This document shows positions 3,906-56,373 of a stretch of 64,000 bases of DNA, piece by piece (within the stretch, counting starts at the first letter, position 1; each line of letters opens with the position of its first letter). Source of the stretch: Heterodera schachtii (taxonomy: Eukaryota; Nematoda; Chromadorea; Rhabditida; Heteroderidae). A program made the position numbers and the translations under genes. The stretch lies in contig SIJG01000005.1 of the NCBI GenBank assembly GCA_023374025.1, positions 130,680 through 194,679 on the forward strand, in the 5' to 3' direction. The notes below the pieces were generated by a model. The model was not told the origin of the DNA, did no database searches, and saw only the letters and a program-made list of their open reading frames with translations.

Positions 3906-4029
3906 TATTTGCGCGAAAATTACATGATTTAATTGCCGGAAATACGTCATTCAAAAATGCATTAGATTTAATCGCCGGAACAATTGCAAACCTTGAAAGC
4001 ATTTGAATAAAAAATCAAAAATTTTTTTC

Positions 4030-5136
4030 GGCTCCCTATCATTTCGTCACTGATCGTTTCGTCACTGTTCAGTTCGTCACCGAGAAAATTTTTTTAAAAA
4101 TTTGTCTGGCAGATTGTCAAAACTAAAAAATAATGTTTACTTTATTTAATAAACAAAATCTTTCATATATATAAGTTTGAAAAGAAGTTGACCACAGCAT
4201 AAAAATTGCAATTATTTAAGTAAACTTTTTTTGAAAGTTCTCTTCTTAAAAATTGTTTTTACCCAAAAATTCATCATAATGCAATTCGACATTCTTACAA
4301 ATTTATTTTTGGCTAACTTTGTGATAAAGATCGCTTAAATTCCGAGAAAATATGTTAAAGCAGCGCCGCGAAGAGACGGTTTGCATTTGCAAATAGTGTT
4401 TGCTCGAGAGTCTCGACTCTTGAAAAGACTAGCTTTTTCGGTCTCGGAAAATTTTTCTTTCTCAAGCAGCATTAGTGCAGGAGGCTCGTTAATAAAAGGT
4501 CGTCGTAAATATCACCCTTGACTCCCCGACCCCTGCCCTCTCGGCCAATCATACGAGACCCTGCTGGCCGACCTCTTCCTTATACAATTGTGATCATAAT
4601 CAGTAGTGCTGTTCGAGACCGAAAATTTCCCGAGACTCGAGACCAAAAAACCCGAGACTTTCTCTAGTCGAGATTCGTGACCGAGACTCTCGAACAGCAC
4701 TAATAATCAGGGCCCTGAACTGAAAATTTTCAAATCAGCATTTGACCGACGAAAATCAGCATTTGTGGTCAAAAACCGCTGTAACCCTTTGAAGTCAGAA
4801 GAGTTGGGAGCCCTCTGATCATAATGAATTGGAAAAAAGAAATTTAGAAATAAGCACATTTTGAAGTTTAAAATTAAAAATGAGAAGCTAAATTAATCTC
4901 TTTTATTTCAGAGAAGAGATCCCATTAAAATTTCACAATCAAGGCAATTTATAATTTTTATTTATTAAATTTATTTAGTTCTTTTTTTGCTAGCATTTTT
5001 TTTTATTAAAGAATGTTTTTTCTGTTTTTAATGCAATGTGCCAAAGAAATTTTTTAAAAATTTTGCTTAGTGACGAAATGATCAGTGACGAACTGAACAG
5101 TGACGAAACGATCAGTGACGAAATGATCGGCCACCA
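4030..5136. mobile_element. foldback MULE-like element, word CGTCACTGATCGTTT
   Basis: Left arm (about 4037-4085) and right arm (about 5064-5130) are inverted arrays of the word ATCATTTCGTCACTGATCG and variants. A 9-bp duplication ATTTTTTTC flanks the element (4021-4029 and 5137-5145), although it is low-complexity and therefore weaker than others. The 1.1-kb centre has no protein similarity that I recognise and contains a 99-bp hAT-like insertion at 4604-4702. Confidence 0.7.
4604..4702. mobile_element. 99-bp hAT-like MITE, word GAGACC/GAGACT
   Basis: TAGTGCTGTTCGAGA (4604) and its complement TCTCGAACAGCACTA (4702) form the ends, flanked by the perfect 8-bp duplication ATAATCAG (4596-4603 and 4703-4710). 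The inside is almost only GAGACC/GAGACT words. Related left ends occur at 40822 and 43731. Confidence 0.85.
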
Positions 5137-5171
5137 ATTTTTTTCTATTTTCATAAATAATGTAGGAAAAA

Positions 5172-5558
5172 CGGTAGGGGTCAGTTCCATCCCGCCAGTT
5201 CCGTCCCAAACTCGTTTAAAAAATCATAACTTTTTTCTCAGTTGGCCAAATTTTATATATTTGGCATCAGTCGAAAGCTCTACATGTTTAGAAGCTTTTA
5301 TTAAACTATTTCTAAGCGATTAAATAACTTATAAAAAGTTGCAACATGAATACTACCAAAAAGTCAGAATTTTTGTATATTTTAATTTATAACTTTTTTA
5401 CATGTCGGTATATCATTGTGATTTTTAGGGAGCCAATAGAGCTTGTTAAGAGTTTTCGAATGATACCAAGTTTATTGAATTCGGTCAAAAAAGAAAAAAG
5501 TTATGATGCTCTAAACTTGGCTGGGACGGAACTGGCGGGACGGAACTGGCTCGTTCCG
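5172..5558. mobile_element. foldback element, word GGACGGAACTGGCG
   Basis: Ends CGGTAGGGGTCAGTTCC (5172) and the complement of CGGAACGAGCCAGTTCC (5558), flanked by the 9-bp duplication TAGGAAAAA (5163-5171 and 5559-5567). The arms continue inward into ATAACTTTTTTC and its complement, which is shared with many foldback elements in the window. Non-coding. Its word is the one used by the neighbouring MULE at 5591, suggesting that transposase as a source of mobility. Confidence 0.8.
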
Positions 5559-5590
5559 TAGGAAAAAACGGCAACAACCAAATTCGGGTT

Positions 5591-7847
5591 CGAAGCGGGT
5601 CAGTTCCGTCTCGCCAGTTCCGTCTGGCCAGTTCCGTCTCGCCAGTTCCGTCTGGGGCCGGTTCCGTCTTGAGCCAGTTCCGTCTCGCCAGTTCCGTCTG
5701 GCCAGTTCCGTCTCGCCAGTTCCGTCTTAGTACTCAAAGGGCCGGTTCCGTCTCAAAAATTTTGGACCCAATTAAATTTAATTTTAAATATTAGTCAATT
5801 TGAATTTCTGTTTATTTGCAAAAAGAAAATAAAATTTTGAATAAATAACAATATGCTAAAACAATAATAATCATTCATTCCATTTGATAATTGCTGGAAA
5901 TTCCCCTAAGCATTTCATTAAACAAATTCGGATTATTTTGATTTTGGCCGTATTGGTGATCATCGTTGATTTGCGGCTGCGCTTTTTCCTGATTGTAGCG
6001 CTTCAGAATGCTCAAAATTCGTCCTGTCCGCTTCACGGTAACGCTTTGCTTTCATCGGCGGAGCATTTCCGGCAAGGAAATGTTCAAAGTCCACGTCAAT
6101 TATTTTCTGGCGCTCACGCAGAATGTTGATGAATTTCCAAATTGGGGGATGTCCATGTCCGATCGCATGTTGCAACGTGCGATGATACGCCTCGGCAAAG
6201 TTGTTTGTGCGGTCAGTGCCGTTCAATGTGCGCTCGTAGACACTCCATTCTTCGGGACGAAACAATGGACGAGTGCGTGTGCCGTTGTTGCGAAGCCGTC
6301 CAACATAGTTGATTATAAACCTTTAAAATTATAAGGAAATTGAAAAAATAATTAAAACTCAACCGACCAATCAAGAACGCCCTCAAGCTCATTTGGTAGA
6401 TAGTCCTTCTAGTGCTGCCAGCGCCGGTGTAAGGTCCTCAAGCGGCACAAACGCCAATGAAGTGATCATTTTGGCAGCTTGTGCAAAGGCTGCGTCCGTT
6501 GTGAAACGCTAAACTTGAGCGTTTCAAAAGTAATAAAAAAAATTTCTTACATGAGTTTGCTCGTCGGTAAGACGTGCTTTCATGTTGCGCACCAAATGGA
6601 ATAGGCAAAAGTTGATTGAGCATTGTGGATGTTTTGCACGGAGTGCGTTGACCATCGCCTGTTCGAAGTCCATGGACGCGTTTGTTGGTGAAAATGTCGG
6701 CCAGCGGTTGCGGACCATGTCAAACATCTTTCGTACGTGGACTGCGACTTGCACGTAAGCAGGCAGTGAAGGACCGGAAACACCCAGTCACCACGACTGA
6801 AATTGGGAGAAAAACCATCAAAAAACAAAATTGACAAAAAAGTACCGAGCCAAAATGACGTAAAGTTGCGAAAAGAGCGTCGGCGCACTCGCAAAGGTTC
6901 CGTCAGCGTAAATGTACTTCATTTCGGAAGCCCCATTTCCGAAAGAAAGTCGGCCAAAAATGAGAATTCTAAAATTAAAAAATGTGTGAAAATTCCCCTT
7001 AAAACACACCGCTGTTGTCCGTCTCGCCCATTTTCGGTGTATGTTCCAGAATCCGCCAGAAGGAAAAGCTCCTGCACTTCTTCGGTGCGTTTGTAGATTC
7101 GGTACTGCTCTGGTAGTTCCAACTCTTGAAGGGTTTGCGGCACAGGCGGCGGCAATTCAATTTCATGGCGGACTCGCTTCACCAGCTTAAAACCAAAAAT
7201 GTGAAAAAGTAAAAAAAAAATAGATTTTTACTTTTTTTGTCGCGTTTTTTGTCGGAATTTTCGCCATTACTGGCGTTGGATTTTGCTGAAGCGTGTGTGC
7301 CCTGATTGCCGCTGGCGTTTCCATCGTCTCAGCGGCACGTCATTTAATGCCAGGTGGTGATTTTTTGTGAGACGACATTTGCCGCGCTGTGGTTGCACGT
7401 GTGTACACCAACTGTCTTCAGAACGACGTCATTTAGCGTTGTGTGAAGGCGCCCTCGGCATTTGAATTCGCCGTGCTGATGTTCACAGCGCCAAAATTTT
7501 ACGTCACCATCGGCGTTCAACAAATGGAAGACATACAGGCAGCCTTCATGTTCGAGTTTTTTGTTGTTTCGTTTGTTACAATATTGTTTTCCATTTTGGG
7601 GCTAAATGAAAAAAATTAAAACCAAACATAAGTGTATAGAAAGAAAAAATAAATGTTAGAAACTTTAAAAAACCAGGTATATTTAGGCTGCGGTAGGCAG
7701 CGAAGTAAAATTAAAAAAAAAATTGGGTCCAAAATTTTTGAGACGGAACCGGCCCTTTGAGTACTAAGACGGAACTGGCGAGACGGAACTGGCTCAAGAC
7801 GGAACCGGCCCTGGACGGAACTGGCGAGACGGAACTGACCCCTACTG
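5591..7847 (-). mobile_element. MULE element with FLYWCH-type transposase
   Basis: Word arrays of CAGTTCCGTCTCGC form the left arm (about 5599-5765) and the inverted right arm (about 7735-7840). TTCGGGTT flanks both sides (5583-5590 and 7848-7855); the ninth base differs. The interior encodes a transposase on the minus strand in pieces. The element sits in the left arm of the foldback element 5586-9880. Confidence 0.8.
5960..7567 (-). pseudogene. MULE transposase with FLYWCH zinc finger, decayed
   Basis: The transposase cuts and inserts MULE-class elements. In order on the minus strand: a FLYWCH finger (about 7567-7370) with the pattern WRCEH, KCRGRLHTT and a terminal HTCNH; a linker exon reading QTLQELELPEQYRIYK (about 7180-7000); the start of the MULE catalytic domain, YIYADGTFASAPTLFSQLY (about 6925-6870), where D is the first expected acidic residue; MDFEQAMVNALRAKHP followed by NFCLFHLVRNMK (about 6680-6580), the usual second acidic and C/H motif; and the C-terminal region RTNNFAEAYHRTLQHAIG (6265-5960). 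Reading frame changes and missing joins between blocks indicate decay, though some gaps may be introns. Family assignment is from these motifs; activity is doubtful. Confidence 0.75.
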
Positions 7848-7956
7848 TTCGGGTTGGGGTCAATTCCCTACCGCCAATTCCCTACCAGCCGTTTCCCTAC
7901 CGGCCAATTCCCTACCAGCCGATTCCCTACCGCCAATTCCCTACCAAGGCATTTGC

Positions 7957-8708
7957 GGAACGGGCCAACTGCGTCCTGCCAACTGCGTCCCGCCAACTGC
8001 GTCCCGCCAACTGCGTCCCAGGCCAACTGCGTCCCGGGCCAACTGCGTCCCAGGCCAACTGCGTCCCAAAATAATTTTAATTTTTTTTTTGAAATTCCAT
8101 TGAATAAGGTTTTAAAAATAGCGAAATTTTGAAAAAAAAGCTGGACTCTATGTTGGCCCTATCCTCGTTTCCAAGCCCAGGCCAAGCTCTGATTTTCCTC
8201 AAAAAATTTGTAACCCTCTGTAGGATTTTTAATTTTCCCGAATTTTCAAACTGGGGGTGTAGGATTACCAAACACCTAAATATTATGGAATTCGGTTCTG
8301 TTCTATGGAGTACACAGTACAGTATGGACGTGATCGGGATCCCGCGGGACTAAATTCGGGATCCCACCGACCTATCTCCGGTCTCTACAATGTTTTTTAT
8401 TACTAGGGCTGCAAAAAATATGCAAATGCACTAAACGTTCACCAAATCAAAACATATAAATGCTATTTTCAGCTCCTTTTTTCATAGCAAGAGTAGAAAA
8501 ATTATAAAAAATATACATAGCCCTAGTCCTAGTTATTATTATGTTCATTATTTAAAAATATTCAATGGAATTTCAAAAAAAAATTAAAATTATTTTGGGA
8601 CGCAGTTGGCCCGGGACGCAGTTGGCCCGGGACGCAGTTGGCCTGGGACGCAGTTGGCGGGACGCACTTGGCGGGACGCACTTGGCGGGACGCAGTTGAC
8701 CCCTACCG
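7957..8708. mobile_element. foldback element, word GGGACGCAGTTGGC
   Basis: Left arm about 7965-8067 and right arm about 8598-8698 are inverted arrays of GCCAACTGCGTCCC. The perfect 9-bp duplication GGCATTTGC flanks it (7948-7956 and 8709-8717). The interior is non-coding and contains a small TAGGGCTGC...GCCCTA repeat at 8404-8525. It interrupts the left arm of the element 5586-9880. Confidence 0.85.
8404..8525. mobile_element. small hAT-like MITE, TAGGGCTGCAAAAAATATGC end
   Basis: TAGGGCTGC at the left and a diverged complement ending AGCCCTA at the right. The left end equals that of the complete element at 41784. No clean duplication flanks it, so this is an old or truncated copy. Confidence 0.5.
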
Positions 8709-9429
8709 GGCATTTGCGCCATTTCCATACCAAAAAAATTTTTCGAAAAAAATTTCAAAATAGAAGCGGATTTTCAATTTTTTGATGTTTTCTCATGCAT
8801 TATTAAGTCAATAAGTTTTATGTTTAATGTTGTAGAGAAGAAAATAGAAATACTTCTAACAAAAAAAGAACAGTACAAAGCTTCAAAAAAATGACCATGC
8901 ATACTTTCTCACAAGCCGAAGCAAAAAATGTTTAAAATAGGGTTTTGTTTTTTTTACCAGCTTTATTCGGTCCACGGATTCTTAAATTAGATCGAGAATT
9001 TTTTTCCAGAATTTACAATTGATTTCAAATCGCTTTGTAGGGGGCATCCAGGGCCCGAAAATTTGGAAGTAAGGTCCGGGTTTAACTATTCAAATTTCAC
9101 CCAGCAGGTTCTGTAAGAATACGAAGTCCCTGAAGCTCCGGGAATTTTGAGCCAGGTTTCGGGTAACCGGATGTTGCGAAATTGGGTTTAAACATATTTT
9201 TGGGTCTGTTCAAAATTTGAAAAATTCAGAGATTTGACACTTCTAACTTTTTTAAATGATCGAATCCTGATAATTTGGTATCACCCGAAAGCTCTTGACG
9301 AGCTAAGTCTAAAAAGCAGTGAATAAATTTTCTTGTATGTTTTAATCTGAATGTTTATAATATTCAATACTTTTGGTATGGAAATGGCCCAAATGCCTTG
9401 GTAGGGAATTGGCGGTAGGGAATCGGCCG

Positions 9430-9807
9430 GTAGGCTTTGGGGGGGGGGGGGGGGGCTGAAGTCAAAAATTCGATTTTTAGGGGTGTATTTTTCCTTTTTA
9501 AGTCAATTTTTAGGGGTGTATTTTTGTTTTTTGAAATCCCGAATATGGGGTGTATTTTACAAAATTTTTCGCCAAAAATTAATATTTTTTTACCATTTTG
9601 GCCTTCATTTTTGAAAAATATGGTAAAATGGTGGTCCGGCGGTGCCGATAGGCGCCGCCGGGAAAATTTTTGAGTATTTTAATGCAATTTTGTTAAGAAA
9701 ATCGCTTAAAATTTCAAAAAAATTTACTGAAAATTTTTTATTTTTGGGTTTCGGGGGGGGGGGGGGGGGCTTTAGCCCCCTCAGCCCCCCCCCCCCCTGC
9801 CTACGCC
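9430..9807. mobile_element. G-run-rich hAT-like element (truncated end)
   Basis: Starts with a long G run followed by CTGAAGTCAAAAATTCG and ends CCTGCCTACGCCCTTG. It matches, in inverted orientation, the complete element at 47109-47485, but about 22 bases of one end are missing. It contains a hairpin module (9636-9660) and two TTTTTAGGGGTGTATTTTT phrases. It splits the right arm of the element 5586-9880. Confidence 0.65.
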
Positions 9808-10117
9808 CTTGGCCGGTAGGGAATTGGCTGGTAGGGAATTGGCTGGTAGGGAATTGGCGGTAGGGAATTGGGTCGATCCCACCAAATTCATACCATGCCG
9901 ATTTGTACTGCCCCGATTTGTGAATCAAAAACAAAATTAAATCATTTACCTAACTAATAAAATAATAGCATAGTCCATCAACCAAATTCTTATTTTTGAT
10001 TTAAAAGACTTGCTCATTGGTTAAAGGATTTGCATAACAATTTTATTTACCTATATATTCTGAATTTTGTGACACCAAACAATTGGAAAAAGGGCAAATT
10101 GTGTTAATTGCAGCAAA

Positions 10118-18351: not shown

Positions 18352-18786
18352 TTTATAATACTTTTAAATGGAAATTTAAAATGTTTATTAGTAAAATGGA
18401 AATGTGTTTTTTCGGTTCCCTTTTCTCACTTAAATATTTCAGTGAATTCAGCGAATTTAATGAATCGCGAGGCTTTCCATAGAGTTGTGTACATATTACG
18501 TGTTACAGCTGATCAAATAAAAAATGGGTTTAATGAATTTTTAAAAGCATTGCATAATTATTAGGTACGAATAAAGAGAATTAATGATTTGAGGGAACTT
18601 AAGGCGATTGATTTTAATGAAATTGAATTTCGAAACTTTTTAAAAATTTTAATTTAAGTATTTAAAAAATGAAGCATAACATAAATTGAATTTGTAAATT
18701 ATGTAAGCATCAAAAGATAATCAAAAATGATCCAAAGTTGCCCAATATCTTATTGACCTTTGGTCGTCGGCGGATCAGTTCCTTTC

Positions 18787-19165
18787 GGTCTACCTCAGTT
18801 CGGCCCCGGCACGGTTCGGCCCCAGCATGTTTTTGACTATAACTTTTTTCTTTGCCAACCAAATCCAATATTGTTGGTATCATTCGATAGCCCTAAGTGT
18901 TCTCTATTAGCTTGCAAAATTTGAAATTTCATTAAGGTTCAAGAAAGTTATGGTCAGAAGAGTTCAAAAAACCAAATTTTCCAACTTTTTTGGCTCGAAC
19001 TTTTTTTAAACTGAACAAATTTTTTTGGAATTTTGCAGGCTAATAGAGCATCTTAAGAGCTCTCGAATGATACCAACATTGTTGGATTTGATTGGCAAAG
19101 AAAAAAGTTATAGTGCAAAAACATGCTGGGGCCGAACCGTGCCGGGGCCGAACTGAGCCGGTCCG
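18787..19165. mobile_element. foldback element, word CGGTTCGGCCCC
   Basis: Inverted arms of CTCAGTTCGGCCCCGGCACG (about 18793 and 19155) continue into ATAACTTTTTTC on both sides. Flanked by GTTCCTTTC (18778-18786) and GTTCCTTTT (19166-19174), a 9-bp duplication with one mismatch. Interior includes GGTATCATTCGATAGCCCTA, shared by several foldback elements. Non-coding. Confidence 0.75.
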
Positions 19166-19538
19166 GTTCCTTTTGGTAGTCGAATGTCATTTTTCCTGCG
19201 GAAAATTTTAAAAATGTTTTTTTGACGCATTGCAAATTCGTAAATGAAAATTTTGGAGGAGTCAAAGCGTTGGAAAGGGCAATTGGGGCGCAGAAAAATG
19301 AGAAAATCCGCTCGAAATTGGCCAACTTTTTAAAAAATGTAAAAGCAAAAATGGCCAAAAACAATGACGGAGAAAGTAAAAAAAAGAAAATGAAATATTT
19401 AATAAATAATAATAAAACATTTACAGGCAATAAAACGTCGCCACAAATTTCAATTTTATTTGAATTAAAAACAAAAAAACTTGGCAATTAAAGAAAAGTA
19501 ACAATTCGGAAAATCATTCAGAAAACTTTAATTAAAAA

Positions 19539-27780: not shown

Positions 27781-27797
27781 TGGCATACGTCCAATAG

Positions 27798-28561
27798 GTG
27801 CTATGCCATTATAAAAAAACCATCAAAAAGGGCGTTATAAAAAACCATCAAATGAAAATTTCGAACAAAAAACTATCTGTAACTTTTGTCAAAGTCTACC
27901 AAATTAGACATTCTTGGTATCATTCGATAGCCCTAACCTTTCTCTATTAGCTCACCTAAATTTCAAAAAATTTGGCCAAAGTTAAGCAAAGTTATGGCCA
28001 TAAGTACACATGTGGCCAGGTTTTCGAATATTTTTGACCATAACTTTTTTGAAACCTAACGAAATTTTTTGAAATTTTGCAGGCTAATAGAGGACACTTA
28101 GCACTATCGAATAATAGCAAGAAAATAAAAAACAAAAATATTTTCTAACAGAAATTTTTTAATTAAATATAAAATTATTTTGGTCATCAAAAATTCTGAC
28201 CAAAACATTCTTAGAACGAAAAAAATAAAGTGATCTTGATATCATTCGCTAGCCCTAAGTATCCTCTATTAGCCTGCAAAATTTCAAAAAATTTATTTAG
28301 GCTTCAAAAAAGTTATGGCCAAAAATATACGAAAACCTGGCCACATATGTACTTATAGCCATAACTTTGCTCAACCTTGGCCGATTTTTTTGAAATTTAG
28401 GTGAGCTAATAGAGAAAGGTTAGGGCTATCGAATGATACCAAGAATGTCTAATTTGGTAGACTTTGACAAAAGTTACAGATAGTTTTTTGTTCGAAATTT
28501 TCATTTGATGGTTTTTTTTATAACGCCCTTTTTGATGGCTTTTTTATAACGGCTCAGCACC
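27798..28561. mobile_element. foldback MULE-like element, word AAAAACCATCAAAAAGGG
   Basis: Ends GGTGCTATGCCATTATAAAA and the complement of GGTGCTGAGCCGTTATAAAA, flanked by the perfect 9-bp duplication GTCCAATAG (27789-27797 and 28562-28570). The arms are unusually long (over 220 bases) and include GGTATCATTCGATAGCCCTA and the ATAACTTTTTT phrase. Non-coding. The 9-bp duplication is the MULE-type length. Confidence 0.92.
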
Positions 28562-36303: not shown

Positions 36304-36621
36304 GGGAAAGGGCCGTTTCGGCGCCGACATTTCGGCGCGATCCCAAGTCTTTTGACTATAACTTTTTTAGTTTCAACGAAATCTAACAATCTTGGTATCA
36401 TCCGAAAGCCTTCCTTCATCTGATCTATTAGCCTTACAAAAAGCAAAAAAGCTTATCTAACCTGTAAAAAGTTAAACTTATCGCAAAACAATAGCTTATT
36501 GGTTAGAAACAGCTTCCAAACATGATAATCTCTCGAATGATACCAAGTTTGTTAGATTTGGTTGACAATGAAAAAAGTTATAGGCCAAAAACTTGGGCTG
36601 TCGACGAAACGAGCCCTACTC
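36304..36621. mobile_element. foldback element, word GTTTCGGCGCCGACA
   Basis: Inverted arms of AGGGCCGTTTCGGCGC type running into TTTTGACTATAACTTTTTT. Flanked by TGGTCAGTT (36295-36303) and TGGTCAATT (36622-36630), a 9-bp duplication with one mismatch. Non-coding; related words appear in the element at 47947. Confidence 0.75.
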
Positions 36622-36959
36622 TGGTCAATTGAACGGTCAGCAGAAATTTCATCCCATGAGAAATTTTATTAGTTTTTTTTTTGAAAAAAAATATTTTTTG
36701 GAATTTATAAAAGTCCTTGGAGAAATGATTTGTGTAGCAAAAATGGTTATTTATTTATTTTTCTTACTCTTTGGCGCATTTAATAAACATCCCACAAAAA
36801 AAGAAAAAAAGCCAACTTTATGAAAATTAATAACAAAATTCCAAATTAATCGTTTACAAAATTAACTATGAAATGGATCAATTATTCGCAAAGCCCATAA
36901 TAATTAACAAATTCCATTTTAATTGTCATCAAATTCCTCTTCCGTTTGCTCATTCTTTT

Positions 36960-38741: not shown

Positions 38742-39884
38742 TTTTAAGTTATTTATAAATCTATAAGTATAGTAAAAATTTAAATTTTTAATTTTTCGGT
38801 AGAAAATTCAAAAAAAAAGTAGCTCAGACGAATGTTTGTCCATTATTAATCCTACAAAATGTGCAGTCTCTCCTCATTTGGACTGTGCTGGGAAAGTGCG
38901 TGAGTCAGCAAAAAATGATTATTGGTTTGACCTCAACACAAAAGGCATGGGAGAAACAGTTCGGACCCAAGCCAAAAAAAAAAAATTTTCCAAAAAATAT
39001 CTCAGAATTTTTTGAATATTTATTCTCTTTTTTAAAGAAAAAAGGAAAAAAAATAATGAAAAATTTAGTACAAAATTGTGCGCTATAATTAGTAAAAGTA
39101 AAAAAAAAAGAAGAGAAACTTTTGTCTGTACTTTAGAATGGACCGATAAAAAAAACCGCCCAAAACGAGTTCCAATCAATCTCTAATGACTAGAGAGACC
39201 GGTTTTTCAGAACCAAAAAATGATAATTAAGCACTTAATTCAGCATCATAAAATGCTAAATTAAGCACAAAAAAGCATGAAAATGGCAAAATAAGCACAA
39301 AAATCGAAAAAAAAGCATAAAAATTTGGAGATTTTTAGGCTTTTACAAATTTCCCCCGTTATGTACTTGGTAATTGGCATTCCTGTACTTGGAAAGAAGG
39401 TTTATGCGATGGCAACCCTGAATTTATCGAATAGAAATTTTTTGGAGGAAAAATCCAACATTTTTGCATGAAAGAAACTGACAAAGGTGCGCAATTTTTT
39501 CAATCAAAAATTATTCTCAAAGTGCGCATGATTTATGCCGGATTCTAATGTCTTTTCACTGGTCGCATCTTTTATTTGTAGGCATTTTCTTCGTTTGAAA
39601 TTTAATTTTGCCATAAATTTGAAAAAAAAAATATTTTTTTACTTCCATTTTCTTTGATTTTAGCATTTGGCAACAGTGATAAATAGAGCAAGGATTTTTA
39701 TGTGGCTAAAAACTTTCACAAATCGACAAGCGCAATTTTCTAGCAAGCTCATTCCAAGTATGAAAAATTCTGAATTTTGCAGGGTGATATGACTCATGCC
39801 AAAGTATTTTTTCATGCAAAATTTCAAGCTATTCTGATAACTCTGAACCGAATTATCAAAATCGGCTCCCGTACAATTCGACAG
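38742..39884. other. intergenic, no gene seen
   Basis: AT-rich. AAATTAAGCACAAAAAAGCA words at 39225-39320 look like an arm of a decayed element. No exon is recognised. Confidence 0.4.
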
Positions 39885-41615
39885 TGGATAATCCGACAGT
39901 GAGGACAATCCGACAAAAACGGACAATCCGACCAAAATGGACAATCCGACAGTAAGGTCAATCCGACAAAAACGGACAATCCGACAAAAATGGACAATCC
40001 GACCAAAATGGACAATCCGACAAAAATGGACAATCCGACAGTGAGGACAATCCGACAAAAACGGACAATCCGACAAAAATGGACAATCCGACCAAAATGG
40101 GCAATCCGACCAAAATGGACAATCCGACCAAAATGGACAATCCGACAGTAAACTAAAGTTTAAAAAAATAATTTTTAGGCATATAAACGGGCTATATCCT
40201 AAAAATATATTCGAATCAAATTAATTGGTTCGAGTTTCTACAAGCAATTGCACGTAAATAGGCAAAAAAAATGTGAGTTTGGGCGATCAAGAAAATGGCG
40301 CGATTGCTTGATCCTGTTGTACATTTTTCCTTGCCATTCCTTTTCTATATTTCGAGTGGGTCATTGTTGTAATCTTGCACAACAAATTCCAATAACTGTC
40401 TTCTTTTAATTTTGTTAAATAACTTAATGGTCAGTAAAGGAAACGAAATTGGCTAATAACGATCGATGCATGCCTTTAATACGGTTGTGGTCCTCATTAA
40501 ATTTTGCTAATTTGTAGAGATGCGCCGTGAATCTATTGTGCGAAACCAAATAAAAAGTCAAGTTTCAAGGATGACCCCATTTAAATAAAAACTCATTAAA
40601 TTTCTTTAAAACTCACTCGAAATAAGTTATTTTGGGCAAAAGCAGTTAACAAATCCCAAAAAATTTTCAAATATTGTCCACTATAACCCTTATTTTTCTT
40701 AATAATTGGGCAAATATATCTTATAGATCAAAAACAAGAAACCATTTAAAAAAGGTCGGAATCGATTTTGACCGCAAAATATGAGAAATATGCAAATTAT
40801 TGGCGCTCTGCGCGTGCCAATGGTAGTGCTGTTCGAGAACGAAAATTTTCCGAGGCTCGAGACCGAGACTTGACCCCGAGACTCAAGACCGATTTTTATG
40901 GTTCTGATTTTTTGGCTCATTTTACGAACAAAATCTGTTAACAAATTGCAATCAAATTTTAGATTTTTCCCCCTCCAGCGGCGCATACCGGCACCGCGGG
41001 ACTACAAAATTTTTTATTTTATAAAAATTGGCAAATTCGCAAAATTTGGCCATTTTTGTACAAAATCTGTGCACAAATTGCACTCAAATTTTTAAAAATT
41101 CGCCGTCCCTGCTGGACACCCTGTTCCCAAAATTTTTTTGGAAAATTTTACCACAAAAAAGACAGTGTAAAAACAAAAAATTCGCCGACAGGGAAAAATT
41201 TAACTAAAAAAATTCACGGTCACGAAAACCGTGAATTTCACGGGTTTTTTGGATCACGGTCACGGTCACGATTCACGGGGTCAATTCACGGTCACGTTTC
41301 ACGGGTTTTTTCAGTCACGGCGCATCTCTACTAATTTGTAAGCTCTTGATTTTTTATTTCTAAACTTCTATTTTTTGTTTTTCAAATTTGTTAATAAATT
41401 TGAACTGTATGTTTTGACTTGAATATATTTTTAGGAAATAGTCCGCCTTTATGTGCCTAAAAATTATTTTTGAAATTTTATAATTCACTGTCGGATTGTC
41501 CACTTCTGTCGGATTGTCTCACTGTCGGATTGTCCAACTGTCGGACTGTCCTCTTCTGTCGGATTGTCCACTTCTGTCGAATTGTCCACCGTCGGATTGT
41601 CCACTTCTGTCGGAT
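39885..41615. mobile_element. foldback element, word GGACAATCCGACAAAAA
   Basis: Left array 39885-40148 has more than 15 copies of GGACAATCCGAC with 5-base spacers; the inverted right array is at 41487-41615 (GTCGGATTGTCCACTTCT). Internal sequences flanking the arrays are also inverted (CTAAAAATTATTTTT phrases). An hAT-like element is inserted at 40515-41330. No exact target-site duplication was found. Confidence 0.8.
40515..41330. mobile_element. hAT-like element, word TTCACGGTCACG
   Basis: Ends TAGAGATGCGCCGTGA (40515) and TCACGGCGCATCTCTA (41330), flanked by the perfect 8-bp duplication CTAATTTG (40507-40514 and 41331-41338). One arm carries TCACGGTCACG words. It contains a left-end copy of the TAGTGCTGTTCGAGA family (40822) and a degenerate hairpin module (40977-41000). 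Nested in the foldback element 39885-41615. Confidence 0.9.
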
Positions 41616-41783
41616 TGCCAGCGAGGCGAGGCGTCTTTGTGTAAAACACAACTGATTTAAAATGTTAAAAGGATATCATTGAGAATTATTATTACACACG
41701 CACGAATAAGAACCGAATTACCAAAATTAATTTGAGCAAAATTCAAGTTTTTAGCACATCAAAATCTTTGCTTTAGTGATAAA

Positions 41784-45479: not shown

Positions 45480-48400
45480 TCAGTTGGTTTGGTTTAAATT
45501 GGGTCGGACGACAGTAACCCCTCCAATATGGTCGATACGGTGTCGCTTGAACAGTTTCATGTACAGCAGACGGCAGTCCGTGCGGATTGTTTTGTTTAGT
45601 GCCAAATAAATGACGGGCGGAAACCCTAAAATACTCAAAAAAAAAGTTCTTCACTGCAAATATTTTGGCTTGACAAAACGTTGTTAAATTGCCTTACCAT
45701 GTATATGTAACCTAAATTCAAAAATTGGCGTTGCTTTTTCATTGGCATTCTTTTTTACCATGCAAAGTCAGCAAGCGTCATCACCCATTGGTCAACTTCA
45801 TGGCTTTGTAAGTATACGTAAATAGAGCTTCCGAACAAATTCATTGCGGAGATCAGCATAACTTGGACAAATATCTAAAAACAAGTAAAAAAATTGATTT
45901 AAAAAACAAATTAAATTAATTTTAAAAAATTATTTAAGAGAAAAAGATTAAGGTTTTGAGTAGAATTTGGACAAATATCTAAATAAGAAGAAAAAAAGCA
46001 ATTTGAAATGAAAAGAATTTTAAATTTCCAAATTCAAAAAATTTATTCTTTAATCGACAAATTTTAGTTTTACTATTAAAAAATGAATAATGACCCGTAT
46101 TTGTGCTGAATCCAATTCGGAAACCAAAATGCCAAACTCTCTGCGATTCGCCCGAACATCGTAGAAAAGTTTAAACGCAAATACCAAATAAATTGACGGA
46201 CTCAAAAGTGCCACCAGATAATTGTGCCAGGGGTGCCACCAATATTCGTACTTAAATAATATATTTCACAAAAACTTTTAGGCTGCACCATTGAAATGTT
46301 TGGAATTTAGCATGAAAATCGCTAATAATTTTAACAAAATAAAACTTCTTTTTTGCATTTTAAATGTTTTTTGACTTTTTTTTTCATTACACTTATTTCA
46401 AATTTGGTTAAGTCCTTTTAGCTTTTCGCGTCCATTTTGGGATTTTATAGATTAGCATCCATTTTGGCACTTTTTAAACTTTTTAATGCCCACTTCCTCG
46501 CGCTGTTGTCGGTCATCAGCAGTGCGATAACCAACGAACGGGTCGAAGAACCAGGTGGAGAAAAGGCTGCTGTACAGGATGGGTTTTTTGAAGAGTACGG
46601 CATAGCCGAGGGCGTACAGGGAACAGGCGAAGAACCATACGTAAATGCGATGACCGGAGAACAAAAGACGGCACAATTTGGCGAAGCCGAGTTCGAGACA
46701 GCGATTCAGTGCCAACACCTAATTACTACTGCATAGAGATTGTTTTTATATTAATTACCAAATCTGCGGAACTTTCAGCAACCCAAAGACCTTAAATTGA
46801 GAGACAAAATTAAAAATTAATTGCGTGTCCCTATCAATTGGGTGTGTGCGAGAAATGATTTTTACCGAGGACCGAGACCGAGAAATGAACACCTAGAAAA
46901 CCGAGAATTAACACCGAGAAAACCGAGAATTAACACAGAGAAAAGATACGAGAACCGAGACCTAAAAAAACTTGAGAAATTTCTCGACTCGGGAATCGAA
47001 AAACGAGAAGTCTTAATAAAATTAAGCTAAAAATGATTTTAAAAATCAAAAACATACATAAAAAATGGGTGGATCAACAGGAATTTTTGCGAAGGAGTAG
47101 GGGGGAGGCAAGGGCGTAGGCAGGGTGGGGCCGAGGGGGCTAAAGCCCCCCCCCCCCCGAAACCCAAAAAGTAAAAAATTTTCAGTAAATTTTTACAATT
47201 TTCTTAAAAATTGCATTATTCAAAAATTTTCTCGGCGACGCCTATCGGCACCGCCGGACCCCCATTTTACCATATTTTTGAAAAATGGAGGCCAAAATGG
47301 CAAAAAATATGAATTTTTTGGCGAAAACGGCGAAAAATTTTGTAAAATACACCCCATAATTCGGGATTTCAAAAAACCAAAAAATACACCCCTAAAAATC
47401 GACATAAAAAGAAAAATACACCCCTAAAAATCGAATTTTTGACTTCAGCCCCCCCCCCAAAGCCAAGGGTCTGGCTACGCCCTTGGGGGGAGGGGTAAGC
47501 GGCCAATTTTGCGAGTGGGTTTCAACATCGAATTTGACGAACTTTTTTTTCAAAACCGCTTTTTTGCGGTGCGTTTTTTCCGAAAAATTTGCAGGAGGAC
47601 TGGCGGTGCCGATAGGCGCCGCCGGGGGAAATTTTGAAGCAATTTGTTAACAAATTTGTAAAATTGACCAACTTTATTTTTTTAGGGATGTATTTTTATT
47701 AGGGCTGGTCCGGAAGCCGGGACTGGTATTAAAAAAACGGGTACAACTGAGTACCCAGTCCCGGTTTTGACCAATTTTGACCGGGACCGTGAAATTCCCT
47801 GTTTTTCCCGGTTTTCCCAGCCAAAAAGTCCCGGTTTCGCCCAAAATTCCCGGTCCCGACCAGCCCTAATTTTTATGCCATACCCGGCGGCGATGGGTGC
47901 GGGATTCCGGTTCATAGGACAGAATAACGGGGACTCTAATTTTCTTTGCACTAGGTCGTTTCGGCGTCAGCCCAAGTTTATGAACCATCATAACTTTTTT
48001 CTTTGTAAGCCAAATCTAACGATCTTGGTTACATTCAAAAGCCTTCACATGCTCTACTAGTCTTACGAAAAACGAAAAAATTTTTAGCCTTTAAAAGATT
48101 ATTAAGAAAAATTTCAAAAAATTCGACTTTTTTGAAATTTTCATGTATAAGTTTTGGTAATTATCTAATTATGAAGCAAAAGCTTAGAAACAGCTAATAA
48201 ACATGATAAGCTTTCGAATGATATCAAGATTACTAGATTTAGTTTACAAATAAAAAAAAGTTATAATTAAGGGTTGTAAATTATGAAGGTTTTTAGTCCA
48301 TATAAATCCGTATTTTGGGGTTTTTCGGTAATAAATCTACATATTTCGCCATTTTTGCTTTTTTAGTCGATATGTTGGCCATTTGGCAAATTTTCAAAAG

Positions 48401-50266
48401 ATCCCCTAAAGATAGACTTTTTGAAAATTTTAAAAATTACCCCCCCCCCCCCCCAAATATACGAAAAATTTGCGCTTTCGTCGTCATTTTGGCATTTTTA
48501 ATTTATTTTTTCGCCATTTTTTTGCGAACATTTCTTTTTTTAATGAGAATTTTTTCTGAATTTTGGCAAACTTGGAGGTATATACAACGGCTGACAATAA
48601 AATTGCATTTTTATGATAAAATCAATTTTTGGTTGTTTTTAAGGTCTTTTTTAAGTTTGTTTAAGCATATATTGAATATTTTTGGAATTTTTGAGGTTTA
48701 AAATTTATTTTTATTTATTTTTGGCAGTTTTTAGTCCATATTTTGGTCCATATTTGGCCATTTTTGAGCTTTTCAATCCATATTTTCGTGCTTATTTAGT
48801 CCATATTTTATGTCCATATTTCGCGTTTTTTAGTCCATATAATTTACAACCCTAGTTATAATTTGAAACTTGGGCTGGCGCCGAAACGGCGGCGCCGAGA
48901 CAATACAGACCCAATTTTCTTCTTTGACAATAATTAATTCTTTGTAAATAATTAGGTTGTAAATTATATGGACTAAAAAAGGCGAAATATGGACATAAAA
49001 TATGGGCTAAAAAAAGTACGAAATATGGACTAAAAAGCTCAAAAATGGCCAAATATGGACTAAAAACTGTCAAAATATATGTTTTAAATCTTCAAAAATT
49101 CTAAAAAAAGGTTTATGTGTTCAATATTTGCTTAGCTTAAATAAACCTAAAAATAAGACAAACAACCAAAAAATGGATTTAAAACTTAAAAAATGCAAAT
49201 TTTTTTAATTGTCGTCCATTGTATAAAAAACACCTCCAAATTTGCCAATTTCAAAAAAAATTCTCATTTAAAAAAAAATTCACAAAAAAATGATGAAAAT
49301 ATGTAAACCCTGATATAAGTAAATAATGTTAAATATTTTTCTGCCCCCGGCGCCAACCCTGCTGTACCTCCCGCCGCCACGCCGACCAAATACATCAGTG
49401 TGGGACTCGAGCAGAAAACGCCGCCGCTCAGATTAAGCCAACCGGTGAAGAAGCCGAGAATCCACAAAATGCCCAAGTCGGCGATGCCGATGTAGAAGAG
49501 CAGTTTGTAGCATGAGTTGTCATGAAAATGCTTCCAAATGGAGTACATGCACGGCACATACAGAACCTAAGACCAGGGATATGTGTGAATGCCAATTTCT
49601 TAAATTTTTGGTTGTCAGAATTAACGATTGCCGTATTTTTCGAACAAAATCAAAAACTTTCGGCAATTTGTTGGAATGGTATGTTGTATATATGTACTAA
49701 TTTTGCTTATCCAATTCTAGAAATTAAAAGACAACAATTTTTTGATGAAAAGCTATCAACAACTCATAATTAATCTTTCAAATTTTTCTCCGGCGGCTCC
49801 TTTCGGCGCCGCTGGCCTCTTCTACTTCCCCTAGAAATTTTCGAAAAGGCACGCCGCAAAAATTAGGTCATCGCTCGTCGTTTGAGGAAAAAATCTTATT
49901 TGTGTTACTTATTATTATTTTTTAATTTTGAGTAAATGGGCCAGCGATGTCGTAAGGCGCTGCCAGAAAGTTTTGAAAATTTGACAATTTGTCAATTTGT
50001 CAAAAAATTGTTTTCAAAAATGAGTAAAAAAAAAAGCCAATTTTTTAGTTTTTTTATCTTCAACAATTGTTGCATTTATACCCCTAACATTTCAAAATAC
50101 CAATTTTGTGTTGATTACTCACATAATAAATGGCGCACAGTACGCATTTGACAATTCCCCCGGCCACAAATTGCCGCCGTCGCTCCAATGGGACGGAGTC
50201 AATGGGAAACGCCGTGCAATTGTAAAGCCGTTCATATTCGGCATGACGGAACAGAAACAGCTCCAT
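45480..50266 (-). CDS. Srt-type serpentine chemoreceptor (7TM GPCR)
   Basis: Eight exons in perfect phase, 343 residues: 50123-50266, 49368-49566, 46759-46790, 46494-46718, 46095-46250, 45759-45874, 45698-45711, 45480-45625. N-terminus: MELFLFRHAEYERLYNC, as in nematode Srt receptors. Other family signatures: YVPCMYSIWKHFHDNSCYKL, FYIGIADLGILWILGFFTGW, LWVAESSADLVLALNRCLEL, WFFDPFVGY, NYLVALLSPSIYLVFAF, and FPPVIYLALNKTIRTDC near the C-terminus. Seven hydrophobic segments fit. Srt receptors sit in sensory-neuron membranes and are thought to sense chemicals; ligands are unknown. The start is the ATG at 50266 preceded by TTG. Exon 7 has only 14 bases. The 2.6-kb intron 2 is filled with transposons. 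Confidence 0.93.
47109..47485. mobile_element. hAT-like element with C/G runs
   Basis: Ends CAAGGGCGTAGGC (47109) and the complement CTACGCCCTTG (47485), flanked by GGGGGAGG (47101-47108 and 47486-47493). Interior: C run, hairpin module (47232-47256), two ATACACCCCTAAAAATCGA phrases. A truncated copy is at 9430-9807. Lies in the Srt gene's intron 2. Confidence 0.8.
47601..47625. repeat. CGGCGG hairpin module, isolated copy
   Basis: TGGCGGTGCCGATAGGCGCC followed by GCCGG. It lies between the elements at 47109 and 47700, in a piece with GCGGTGCGTTTTTTCCG upstream and TTGTTAACAAATTTG downstream, the usual surroundings of the module. Confidence 0.7.
47700..47868. mobile_element. 169-bp hAT-like MITE, word CCCGGTTTTGACC
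   Basis: Ends TAGGGCTGGTC (47700) and GACCAGCCCTA (47868), flanked by the perfect 8-bp duplication ATTTTTAT (47692-47699 and 47869-47876). The inside consists of CCCGGT and CCGGGAC words. Lies in Srt intron 2. Confidence 0.9.
47947..48912. mobile_element. foldback element, word GTTTCGGCGCCGCC
   Basis: Arms GTCGTTTCGGCGTCAGCCCA (47954) and the complement of GTTTCGGCGCCAGCCCAAGT (about 48890), running into CATAACTTTTTTCTTTG. Flanked by the perfect 9-bp duplication AATTTTCTT (47938-47946 and 48913-48921). An hAT-like element is nested at 48268-48854. Lies in Srt intron 2. Confidence 0.82.
48268..48854. mobile_element. hAT-like element, word TTTAGTCCATATTT
   Basis: Ends TAAGGGTTGTAAATTA (48268) and TAATTTACAACCCTA (48854), flanked by the perfect 8-bp duplication GTTATAAT (48260-48267 and 48855-48862). 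Arms of TTTTTAGTCCATATTT words and a C run. A partial second copy with GGTTGTAAATTATATGGACT starts near 48955. Confidence 0.88.
48955..49320. mobile_element. partial hAT-like copy, word AAATATGGACTAAAAA
   Basis: Starts GGTTGTAAATTATATGGACT, matching the complement of the right end of 48268-48854, and ends around ATATGTAAACCCTGATATAAG. The two ends are diverged and no duplication is clear. Confidence 0.5.
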
Positions 50267-53304: not shown

Positions 53305-56300
53305 GAGGAATTTCGGCAAACTGTTGACTTTATAGAAAATTGTTATAAAGACGGATTCAAACAGCCGCTGATTTTGTTTTGCCAACGAGCGGTAAAAAAA
53401 TATTAGATTTAATTATAAATAGACATTCGGCGCGCCTATGATTCGTCTACTCGACGATTCGTCTACTCAGCCAAAAAGTGACGATTCGTCTACTCAGCCA
53501 AAATGTGACGATTCGTCTACTCAGCAAAAAAGCGACGATTCGTCTACTAAACGATTCGTCTATTCGACGATTCGTCTACCCAGCCAAAATATGACGATTC
53601 GTCTACTCAGCAAAAAATGCGGTTTTTTGCGATTTTTTTTTCATCAATTTTCACATTTAAGCGTGGTCTTATCTATCACCCGTCTTTGTCAGATTTTCTG
53701 GCAGTGATTCTGGATGATGTTGACAAGCAGGCGGACATCGCAAGATCTGCCCGAGTGTTCCCGCACAAGCGCCGCATCAACATGAGGACCGTGAATAATT
53801 GGATGATTGGTCGCTTTTTACCATTGGCAAAAACCCTGGTATTATTCCGCACAAGTGATTGGATTTTTTAACCTCAATTCTCGTGATTTTTCAACATTTT
53901 CATTTGATTCGAATTGTTATTTTTGATGTTATTATAATAAATTTTCGATTTCACGCGAATGATGCCTGATTCATATTCAGCACCATAAAAACCCCAGAAA
54001 AATGCTTTAAAAGTTTGTTTCGAGTTCGAATCCGGGTTATAGAACTTTTTTGGCGGAGTAGATGAATAATGTAGACGAATCGTCGCTTTTTTGCTGAGTA
54101 GACGAATCGTCATATTTTGGCTGGGTAGACGAATCGTCGAATAGACGAATCGTTTAGTAGACGAATCGTCGCTTTTTTGCTGAGTAGACGAATCGTCACA
54201 TTTTGGCTGAGTAGACGAATCGTCGAGTAGACGAATCGTTGAATAGACGAATCGTTGAGTAGACGAATCGATGGGAGGCGAGACATTCAATTTATTAATT
54301 ATTTAAATTAAGTTAAATATAAATTTAGTAAACATTTAATTTATTTTAGGATTATATGACACATGAAAGTGAAGAGAACATCGAGAAGAAATTGGAATTA
54401 AAGCAGGTAAAAATTGAATTTTATTTTCAAAAATTGGGTATATTGGACTAACATTCTAAGGTAATTTCGTTTTTCTTTATCATTTATTATTACTTTTTCT
54501 GGTGGAAGTCAATGCCGGCCCAGTTGGTGGCTTTGGCACTTCTTCCCGTGTCAAAATTTCGGTTCGGTTAAATGACCGTGAACAACCCAAGAAATTATCA
54601 AAGTGATAATTTAAAACTTTCAGAAATACATAAAACTATCGATTCAATTAATCAAGAGGAGCTAAGAACGAAGAAATTAGTCTCCCCGGTTTAAAATCCA
54701 TTTCCGCAACTGGAGACCTAGTTTTTCATTCTTATCTCCTTGAGGCGAATCCATTGGCATTATCATCATATGTTTTTTGGATGATTTTGACTATGCTTTA
54801 GCCAAACAATCTTTTATTTATAAAAATTTTTGTAAAAATATTTTCTTTATTTAAACTTTCTGAAATAATTAATTAATCTAAATGTTCTATATTAAGGAAT
54901 GAGTTCGGTAACAGCGAGGCGGTGATCCTCTTTCTTCACTCTTCTCCTTTCGACCCACGCTTAATTGAATCGCGCCAAGTCCAAAATGAGGTCGAACGAA
55001 TTTCGAACGGACAAACGAAGTGCGTTTTCCTCATTCTGCGCGAAGCCATTGAACGGTCGGTGAATTTCGAAATTGTGAATTTTTTAAAGTGAATTTAGTA
55101 ATTCTAGGCTTAATACCAAAAATACAAAATTAAGGCTTCTCACTGATTTTGGACGACAAATTTTTGGTGACAGTCGCTGTCCATCGCTACAGTAGTGCAA
55201 CCCCACAGGAATTGACATTTACTCGAGAAATTATACGCCGGTCAACGGCTATTGTAATATGATATTACAGTATCGCATCAGATTTAATTGAATAACTATG
55301 TATTTTATGATTCATTTTTATTTTTGGCTCCATTTAGCAAGATTCATACCGTTCTTTATTGGCCCACACAAAGCGAATGCAGCAGGTAAAGACGAATAAT
55401 ATAATAATTATTAAATTATTTACCCAATTTAAATTAAAGCTTTTCACTTTGCCCGGAGTTGTTGAACGCTTCTTTCCCCGTCCTGAAGAAGCTCACATGG
55501 TCAAAGCCATCAGAGAAGTGCTCACAAAAAGTTGGAGCATCGGAGAAGGGGACGAAGAAGCGGAGGAAATAATAAAAGTGAGTGAATATTTAGAAAATTA
55601 AATTAATTTAAAAATTGAAATTAGAGTGAAAATGAACTCGGAAAAATATGTGATGAAATGGAACGAATGTGGAAGTCCCATGAGTGGACGAAGTATTTTC
55701 TTTGGTGATGAAATAATTAAAGAATTGGACAGAATGACAAACTTTGAACGGAACAATTTTATTATAATGGAAAAGCTGAGGCCTGCGCAAGTCAAAGTAA
55801 GTAAATGAAAAATAAATGTGTACAAATTAGGCGAAATTTTGAAAAAGCCATGACTAGGAATAGTAAAAGACTAAAAGACCTTTAAACGGGTCCATGGTCA
55901 TTTAGAAAACCTATTTTAGGGCAGCAATCTCCAAAAATTGATCAAATGTTATAGTATCTCCCGAGGACTTATGTAAATTGAAAATTGTTTTGGCCAAAAG
56001 GCAAAAGATGAACTTCTCATCTTAATTGCTTAAAAACATCTGCGAGGGATCAAATCAGATACTTTCAAATTAGCCTTTTTTCACCTTAAAAAATATTTTG
56101 CTTTCAATATAAGAAACAAAATAAATTTATTTTTATTTTGTTGCTTTAAAATTTTAGAATCATTTCATTTTTCCCAACGCTGCGGCAATTTTTAATGTCG
56201 CGGCAACGCCCGAATTGGGCATTTTCGGCTGTTTGCTTGGCAACATTGAGGACGGAACGGTGCTGCAACAATTCAGCGGAGAGGCGCATCAAATGAAGAC

Positions 56301-56373
56301 GAAATCGGCCAGCGATAACGAAGGCGGAATTTGGAAAGGCAAAAGTGTTTACGACTCGCCACTTTTGGTGTGA
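53305..56373 (+). pseudogene. glutathione-synthetase-like gene, broken copy
   Basis: Exons by similarity to eukaryotic glutathione synthetase: 53305-53391 (FIENCYKDGFKQPLILFCQR), 54350-54406 (DYMTHESEENIEKK), 54502-54567 (VEVNAGPVGGFGTSSRV, the substrate-binding strand), 54897-55055 (NEFGNSEAVILFLH), 55108-55253, 55338-55385 (LLAHTKRMQQ), 55440-55577 (LFTLPGVVERFFPRPEEAHM), 55625-55796 (MKWNECGSPMSGRSIFFG), 56158-56373 (ATPELGIFGCLLGNIEDGTV to stop). Compared with the minus-strand copy there are four faults: the acceptor before 54502 is CTG instead of CAG, the NHTDTMVAKALHMAW exon is missing, exon 55108 lacks 20 bases, and exon 55625 is 2 bases short. A foldback element fills the intron 53392-54349. 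Family enzymes join gamma-glutamylcysteine and glycine; cyst nematodes have many secreted variants. Confidence 0.85.
53429..54279. mobile_element. foldback element, word GACGATTCGTCTACTCAG
   Basis: Left arm 53438-53620 and right arm 54057-54270 are inverted and nearly identical, built from GACGATTCGTCTACTCAGCC units. Flanked by TAGACATTC (53420-53428) and GAGACATTC (54280-54288), a 9-bp duplication with one mismatch. The spacer between the arms contains an open frame on the plus strand (about 53660-53871) reading FLAVILDDVDKQADIARSAR. It lies in an intron of the glutathione-synthetase-like pseudogene. Confidence 0.82.

What the first reader, a model, noticed from the sequence alone, without database searches (positions are those of the whole stretch)
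4030..9880. Foldback elements whose arms are repeated words, different in each element, sharing a MULE-type target-site length
At least eleven elements have inverted arms made from one short word repeated many times: CGTCACTGATCG (4030), GGACGGAACTGGCG (5172 and 5591), CCAATTCCCTACC (5586), GGGACGCAGTTGGC (7957), CGGTTCGGCCCC (18787), AAAAACCATC (27798), GTTTCGGCGCC (36304, 47947), GGACAATCCGAC (39885), GACGATTCGTCTACTCAG (53429), GGGTCCTCAAATGTC (60222). Seen directly: perfect 9-bp duplications at five (TAGGAAAAA, ACCAAATTC, GGCATTTGC, GTCCAATAG, AATTTTCTT) and 8 of 9 matches at four more. MULEs are known for 9-bp duplications, and the 5591 element encodes MULE/FLYWCH pieces. Inference: one MULE group whose end-binding word is replaced as a set, creating families with private recognition sequences.
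Basis: partly seen in the sequence, partly recalled or inferred. Interest (0 to 1): 0.87.

Follow-up and report, generated by a model that had tools for sequence, protein, structure and literature searches.

The report
Jumping genes with switchable ID words
An animal genome, probably a nematode's, is full of jumping genes whose two ends are built from copies of a short DNA word, and related families differ because the same letter has changed in all or nearly all copies of the word, as expected if the word is the address read by each family's own jumping enzyme.

Summary
The window holds 12 inverted-arm elements, some nested; 7 have real word arrays, 5 (E2, E5-E8) carry only one or two units per arm. 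Ends are flanked by 8-9 bp target duplications, not strictly 9: of 52 elements, 28 have exact flush 8- or 9-bp duplications (mismatched-end null 0.27%).

They belong to a known kind: FLYWCH-MULE foldback transposons of the Tm1/Phantom/Muta type. Of 37 loci chosen by transposase domain, 22 have word arms on both sides, 11 on one. 35 elements with a FLYWCH piece carry 25 words.

New is how words differ. They fall into frameworks and differ by few core bases. Between sister elements the core base differs in every copy (9/9, 8/8, 6/6, 7/7), while spacing, spacers and copy-specific edge letters largely persist, so arrays were not replaced; copies were rewritten one by one. Two families are mixed, with old-type inner copies. 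Word distance tracks FLYWCH distance beyond catalytic-domain distance (partial Mantel 0.41, p=0.0002; 0.31-0.54 in subsets).

Most likely the word core is the FLYWCH binding site and families split by specificity change. Binding is untested. New variant of a known kind.

The parts
4020..5145 (.). E1, word GTGACGAANNGATC-type (three to four copies per arm); arms 4038-4080 and 5069-5127; duplication AATTTTTTTC (low complexity)
5172..5558 (.). E2, 387-bp non-autonomous element, word GGGACGGAACTGGC (two copies per arm), caps CGGTAGGGGTCA / CGGAACGAGCC; duplication TAGGAAAAA at 5163-5171 and 5559-5567
5586..9880 (.). E3out, word GGTAGGGAATTGGC (innermost copies 8718-8731 and 9375-9388 carry the sister word GGTATGGAAATGGC); duplication ACCAAATTC 5577-5585 and 9881-9889; interrupted by E3in, E4 and a further insert
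5591..7846 (-). E3in, word GAGACGGAACTGGC, broken FLYWCH-MULE transposase on the minus strand; duplication [A/G]TTCGGGTT 5582-5590 and 7847-7855
7347..7601 (-). FLYWCH zinc-finger piece of the E3in transposase (E 7.4e-08)
6527..6787 (-). MULE domain piece of the E3in transposase (E 7e-05, 23.6 bits, under the curated cut-off of 27.6)
7957..8708 (.). E4, word GGGACGCAGTTGGC, caps CGGAACGGGCC / CGGTAGGGGTC; duplication GGCATTTG(C) 7948-7956 and 8709-8717
18786..19165 (.). E5, word GGCCGAACCGTG (two copies per arm), cap CGGTCTACCTCA; duplication GTTCCTTT 18778-18785 and 19166-19173; interior related to those of E2 and E8
27797..28561 (.). E6, 328-bp arms with two AAAAACCATC-containing units each; duplication GTCCAATA(G)
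36305..36622 (.). E7, word GGCGCCGAAAC (one or two copies per arm); duplication GGTCAGTTG / GGTCAATTG
39873..41620 (.). E9, word GGACAATCCGAC, arms about 14 and 7 copies; no target duplication found
47947..48912 (.). E8, word GGCGCCGAAACG (one copy left, one and a part right); duplication AATTTTCTT 47938-47946 and 48913-48921
53429..54280 (.). E10, word GAGTAGACGAATCGTC; duplication AGACATTC 53421-53428 and 54281-54288
60222..61374 (.). E11, word GACATTTGAGGACCC; duplication [A/G]GATTTGGT 60213-60221 and 61375-61383

Best explanation
These are cut-and-paste MULE transposons of the FLYWCH-carrying Tm1/Phantom/Muta type together with their non-autonomous derivatives. Each end is a short cap (often [C/G]GG plus about nine bases, a different cap at each end) followed by 2-14 copies of a 13-16 bp word in opposite orientation in the two arms. 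SHOWN: elements, arms, target duplications, FLYWCH-MULE transposases inside the arms, discrete words, base differences shared by all or nearly all copies on a kept copy scaffold, correlation of word with FLYWCH sequence. INFERRED: the invariant word core (about 7-10 bp) is the site bound by the element's own FLYWCH domain; several bound copies per end give the avidity that a short site lacks; when the FLYWCH domain shifts specificity, selection on transposition rewrites the core in each copy by point mutation, while edges and spacers drift slowly and are retained. The result is a set of families with private addresses that should cross-mobilise little. The likely gain is escape from the load of non-autonomous copies that titrate the old transposase; one 310-bp non-autonomous interior is found behind several different words, as if derivatives follow the new addresses.
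Against: No binding or transposition was tested. Elements are related, so Mantel p-values overstate the evidence, and the MULE partial is itself weakly positive (0.11-0.16, p 0.01-0.08, in five of six runs). L008 and L056 have nearly the same word (1 of 16 letters) but FLYWCH domains 53% different; L073 and L074 share a word with 18% different FLYWCH. Not all word differences are complete: L063 mixes two core types (inner copies GGGCCC-type, outer CGGCCC-type), so L061/L063 differ in only 3 of 6 copies; L024/L032 differ in 8 of 9; one of three L077 copies is mutated. Spacing is identical only in L071/L072, off by a base in places in the others. One copy-order test (L051/L075 left arms) was not significant (p 0.29). 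The excess of FLYWCH over MULE change in different-word pairs (ratio 1.59 in 16 pairs against 1.03 in 9 same-word pairs) rests on two lineages. Most transposase copies here look broken. Some MULE loci have no clear word arms (L002, L006, L055, L060).
Confidence: 0.66

Rival explanations
1. Molecular drive: slippage, unequal exchange and hairpin gene conversion homogenise each arm, so a chance mutation spreads to all copies without any selection on binding.
For: The two arms of one element are often 93-100% identical (82-90% in some), which suggests exchange between arms; copy number varies between arms.
Against: Between families the copy spacing, the spacers and copy-specific letters a few bases from the core largely survive in order while the core differs in all copies; conversion would need very short tracts (inference: under about 9 bp). 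An isolated copy beyond a 12-bp spacer changed too (L071/L072).
Confidence: 0.17
2. The word is bound by something other than the transposase: an element-coded or host factor that controls expression or silencing, as VANC proteins do at tandem motifs of Arabidopsis VANDAL MULEs.
For: VANDAL families have private tandem motifs read by VANC, not by the transposase (PMC5735166, sections 9 and 10 read). The words are also kept in short derivatives (L011-L019, L023, L035).
Against: The words sit at the ends; covariation is with the FLYWCH domain of the transposase itself. Only FLYWCH and MULE matched in the 8 frames, but the interiors were not searched exhaustively for other proteins.
Confidence: 0.12
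3. Ordinary satellite arrays that happen to lie in opposite orientation.
For: At least one word also forms a single-orientation run (C3:3186678-3187379, nine hits, all plus).
Against: Target duplications flush with the caps in 28 of 52, transposase between the arms, minus-then-plus order in 11 of 12 neighbouring pairs.
Confidence: 0.02

Closest known systems
Tm1 Mutator/Foldback family of root-knot nematodes (PMC3169594; abstract, sections 5, 9, 10 and passages read)
   Same: Asymmetric 7-bp end motifs, TIRs of 1-9 tandem copies of a mostly 14-bp motif, 8-10 bp (mostly 9) duplications in 45 of 53, FLYWCH+MULE transposase, non-autonomous derivatives.
   Different: One motif consensus per species in the parts read; no set of alternative words in one genome, no copy-by-copy rewriting, no word-FLYWCH comparison there.
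Muta1-Muta14 MULEs of Aedes aegypti (PMC5225508; passages seen, parts of the abstract among them)
   Same: 8-9 bp duplications, FLYWCH N-terminus in 13 of 14 families, 9-15 bp subterminal tandem repeats in 10 of 12 long-TIR families; Muta1 is called a type 2 foldback and is active in yeast.
   Different: The passages seen do not compare the repeat words between families or with the FLYWCH domain.
Phantom clade of MULEs (PMC6446971, passages seen; Marquez and Pritham 2010 seen only as a reference)
   Same: FLYWCH in some members, 8-10 bp duplications, variable TIR length, invertebrate hosts.
   Different: No word system in the passages seen.
Galileo, P superfamily foldback (PMC3688188; abstract and section 2.5 read)
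   Same: Multiple binding sites for the transposase DNA-binding domain in the tandem repeats of the TIRs; partial specificity between subfamilies.
   Different: THAP domain, unrelated transposase superfamily.
VANDAL/VANC of Arabidopsis (PMC5735166 abstract and sections 9-10, PMC10398659 abstract)
   Same: MULE families with private short motifs in tandem repeats that diverge together with the protein that reads them.
   Different: Reader is an anti-silencing protein; repeats lie in non-coding regions and change by gain and loss of repeats.

Membership tests
FLYWCH-MULE (Phantom/Tm1/Muta-type) transposon | MULE catalytic domain in an element between the arms | tested here: met
   PF10551 over cut-off in L048, L051, L071, L072; the window copy E3in is below cut-off alone
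FLYWCH-MULE (Phantom/Tm1/Muta-type) transposon | N-terminal FLYWCH zinc finger | tested here: met
FLYWCH-MULE (Phantom/Tm1/Muta-type) transposon | 8-10 bp target-site duplication | tested here: met
   28 of 52 elements exact flush 8 or 9 bp against a 0.27% null
Tm1-like Mutator/Foldback | asymmetric end caps, then a tandem 14-bp motif | tested here: met
   caps CGGAACGGGCC at one end and CGGTAGGGGTC at the other in GACGGAAC, GACGCAGT and GACGGAGT elements; units 13-16 bp; E7, E8 and others have too few units
Tm1-like Mutator/Foldback | transposase close to known nematode/insect members | tested here: met
   L048 transposase against Photinus pyralis 56% and Meloidogyne hapla 50% identity over 98-99%; one lineage only
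Phantom clade in the strict phylogenetic sense | placement in group 20 of the MULE tree | not tested
   no reference tree was built
Galileo-type foldback | P-superfamily transposase with THAP domain | tested here: not met
   Pfam finds MULE and FLYWCH only in the 8 frames scanned
VANDAL/VANC-type system | separate VANC-like protein reading the motif | tested here: inconclusive
   only FLYWCH and MULE were found in the 8 frames scanned; interiors not searched exhaustively

The most novel reading that the evidence does not exclude
Each word switch is a transposase speciation event: a FLYWCH specificity change followed by point-by-point rewriting of the binding-site copies in both ends, on an unchanged array, outer copies first in the two mixed families, driven by escape from non-autonomous copies. 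Because about 25 word/FLYWCH pairs coexist in one genome, the FLYWCH recognition code could be read from sequence.
Probability: 0.45. Interest if true: 0.87.

Novelty: new variant of a known kind. Interest (0 to 1): 0.74.

Why it matters
How a DNA-binding protein and a multi-copy binding site change together is a long-standing question, because all sites must follow the protein. Here one genome offers about 25 word/transposase pairs, sister pairs one base apart, and two arrays with mixed copies. That makes transposase-site coevolution, family splitting and the FLYWCH code directly testable; the only FLYWCH structure that turned up among solved structures was 2rpr, a domain without DNA by its title.

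Tried and rejected
Satellite arrays in random orientation: rejected. Strict 9-bp rule: replaced by 8-9 bp. The anchored test missed ends with other caps (E3in, L071, L072, E7, E8, E10, E11 gave no flush repeat under the cap rule although searches show repeats), so 28 of 52 may be low. Whole-array replacement: rejected. Word-specific FLYWCH residues (QHG in L071 and the window copy against QRD in L072 and L070) are a lead only; no per-residue test was run. A bias of the word changes towards transversions was looked for by eye and is not claimed. Rfam, phage, plasmid, E. coli, viral and prokaryote collections were not used, as unlikely to inform on a eukaryotic genome.

Rows dropped or chosen: Mantel used 30 of 35 elements with a word and a FLYWCH piece (5 lacked a usable MULE match); words were assigned by me from repeat-finder units, L059 and L065 counted as one word; robustness runs dropped broken or short domains. 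The FLYWCH/MULE ratio used pairs with MULE difference under 0.2. TSD sets used elements with both arms only (52). In some searches and 78 copies were matched by order, with offsets chosen by me for L051/L075 and L051/L052; the L071 right arm was not compared with L072's because copy numbers differ, and L071's own two arms, out of register, differ in 4 of 8 copies at the first edge letter. Searches listed 100 of 102 and 100 of 137 places; one search listed only the first of 908. The 29 loci fetched after one search were chosen for long frames or good FLYWCH matches, which favours well-kept copies.
Full report
1. What is in the window. The best-resolved stack is 5163-9889. A GGTAGGGAATTGGC-word element (5586-9880, duplication ACCAAATTC) was hit by a GACGGAACTGGC-word element carrying transposase pieces (5591-7846, duplication [A/G]TTCGGGTT), by a GGGACGCAGTTGGC-word element (about 7957-8708, duplication GGCATTTGC) and by an insert of another type (9435-9810). 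The undisturbed opposite arm of the outer element reads ccaaGGCATTTGGgccatttcc where the other arm is interrupted, an empty-site-like sequence with one mismatch. Seven of the 12 elements (E1, E3out, E3in, E4, E9, E10, E11) have arrays of three or more words per arm; E2, E5, E6, E7 and E8 have one or two units.

2. Target duplications. For 52 elements with both arms located (12 in the window, 40 elsewhere) the best 9-mer shared by the two flanks is perfect in 21 and at least 8 of 9 in 45; pairing left flanks with right flanks of other elements gives 3.1% and 27% (2652 pairs). Asking for an exact repeat flush with a cap of the form NGG...CCN gives 8 bp in 16, 9 bp in 12, 5-6 bp in 8, a poly-C 12-mer in 1 and nothing in 15; null 0.23% for 8 and 0.04% for 9. 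L017-L019 are copies of one insertion, so the independent count is 26 of 50. The length is 8-9 bp.

4. Words come in frameworks. A degenerate pattern for two adjacent copies, GGNANGNANNTGGC twice, gives 102 places and none for the pattern read backwards. The words in the 100 listed are a short list with a few single-letter variants: GGGACGCAGTTGGC, GGGACGGAGTTGGC, GGGACGGAACTGGC, GGTAGGGAA[T/A/G]TGGC, GGTATGGAAATGGC, GGTACGAAAATGGC. With two free core positions, AGACNNAACTGGC twice gives 137 places; of the 100 listed, 64 are GG/GG, 33 GC/GC, 3 have one odd copy, none mixes GG and GC. GGCGANNTTTCGG twice gives 47: 32 GA, 8 CG, 6 TA, 1 mixed. NNGCCCAANCGTG twice gives 908; those listed fall into GC, GG and CG types before GCCC. 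In all, 25 words were found among 35 elements with a FLYWCH piece.

5. The word is rewritten copy by copy. Sister elements were aligned arm to arm. L071 and L072 have identical copy spacing in the left arm (26,14,14,16,16,14,14,14). All 9 copies read GACGGAAC in one and GACGCAAC in the other (one L072 copy reads GACGCAAT), including a copy separated by a 12-bp spacer; the remaining 13 word positions differ in 5 of 117 cells, and copy-specific letters are largely kept in order. The same holds for L051/L075 (8 of 8 in each arm; other positions 1 of 96 and 9 of 96), L059/L061 (6 of 6 in each arm; 2 and 3 of 72), L046 against L032 and L034 (9 of 9; 9 and 10 of 117), L059/L063 (7 of 7 at one position, 4 of 7 at the next), L051/L052 (5 of 5 at two positions). 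In these pairs spacing is the same or off by a base in places (L052 also has a longer gap). In the same-word comparisons between elements no position differs in more than 2 copies. Shuffling copy order shows that copies correspond one to one (p 0.0001-0.011 in 8 of 9 tests, 0.29 in one). Within elements the core is invariant or nearly so and the edges vary. Incomplete cases: L024 against L032 differs in 8 of 9 copies at two positions, the innermost copy keeping the sister word in both arms; the window's outer element is of this kind. L063 has GGGCCC-type inner and CGGCCC-type outer copies, so it differs from L061 in 3 of 6. Both look like intermediates with old inner copies, which is an inference; direction of change was not established.

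6. Word and FLYWCH. Over 30 elements word distance correlates with FLYWCH distance (0.76) and MULE distance (0.71); the partial correlation is 0.41 with FLYWCH and 0.13 with MULE. The FLYWCH partial stays at 0.31-0.54 by ranks, without broken domains, with one element per word, and inside the window-type clade; the MULE partial is -0.04 to 0.16. Sister pairs with different words have a FLYWCH-to-MULE difference ratio of 1.59 (16 pairs), same-word pairs 1.03 (9 pairs); the pairs come from few lineages. Counter-examples: L008/L056 and L073/L074. Letters just after the WRC motif differ in several word-switch pairs: QHG against QRD (L071/L072), KNS against KDS (L003/L077), TRV against SRL (L051/L075). 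In WRKY factors the equivalent strand reads DNA (recalled).

7. Derivatives. An interior of about 310 bp is shared, 66-80% identical over most of its length, by elements with the words GACGGAAC, GACGCAGT, GACGGAGT and GCCGAAAC (window E8), and over 298 bp (68%) or shorter stretches by GGCCGAAC (window E5); reversed sequences give one hit, E8 with itself. So a non-autonomous lineage has carried several addresses.

8. Reading. The elements are members of a known kind. The mechanism proposed is that the word core is the transposase's FLYWCH site and that families split when specificity shifts. Homogenisation alone does not explain kept spacers and edges; a separate reader protein (as VANC) is not excluded. 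Papers: PMC3169594 (abstract, sections 5, 9, 10, passages), PMC5735166 (abstract, sections 9, 10), PMC3688188 (abstract, one section), PMC5225508 (passages), PMC6446971 (passages), PMC10398659 (abstract), PMC13359780 (passages). Searches; in what I saw of them no paper described copy-by-copy word change, but most listed papers were not opened.

Noticed in passing
window 9435-9810, and about 47110-47482: A different repeat (poly-G stretch, 'cctacgccctt' end) sits in the right arm of the outer element between two copies of GGCCGGTAGG; a related-looking sequence lies near 47.1-47.5 kb.
   Followed up: partly
G000:C3:3186678-3187379; G000:C2:3059513-3060029: The word GGCGAGATTTCGG also forms a single-orientation run on C3, perhaps a satellite in the making; on C2 one arm of a CGGCCCAANCGTG element looks much expanded against the other.
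   Followed up: no
window 54892-55867 and 61837-62830; 56149-56691 and 59514-60044: Large inverted duplication (87% over 1000 bp, 84% over 558 bp) around the 60.2-kb element.
   Followed up: no
window 10374-10976 and 12888-13412: Two similar frames (SYIDHSVI... WDVF.REIW) with no Pfam family over cut-off.
   Followed up: partly
window 28728-29958: A unit of about 605 bp with TCGGAAA arrays is repeated head to tail beside element E6.
   Followed up: no
G000:C9:177175 and C129:220020, 222072: Three copies of a FLYWCH-MULE transposase in open frames of 504 codons, two of them about 2 kb apart; possibly recent. Only the C9 copy (L048) was read.
   Followed up: partly
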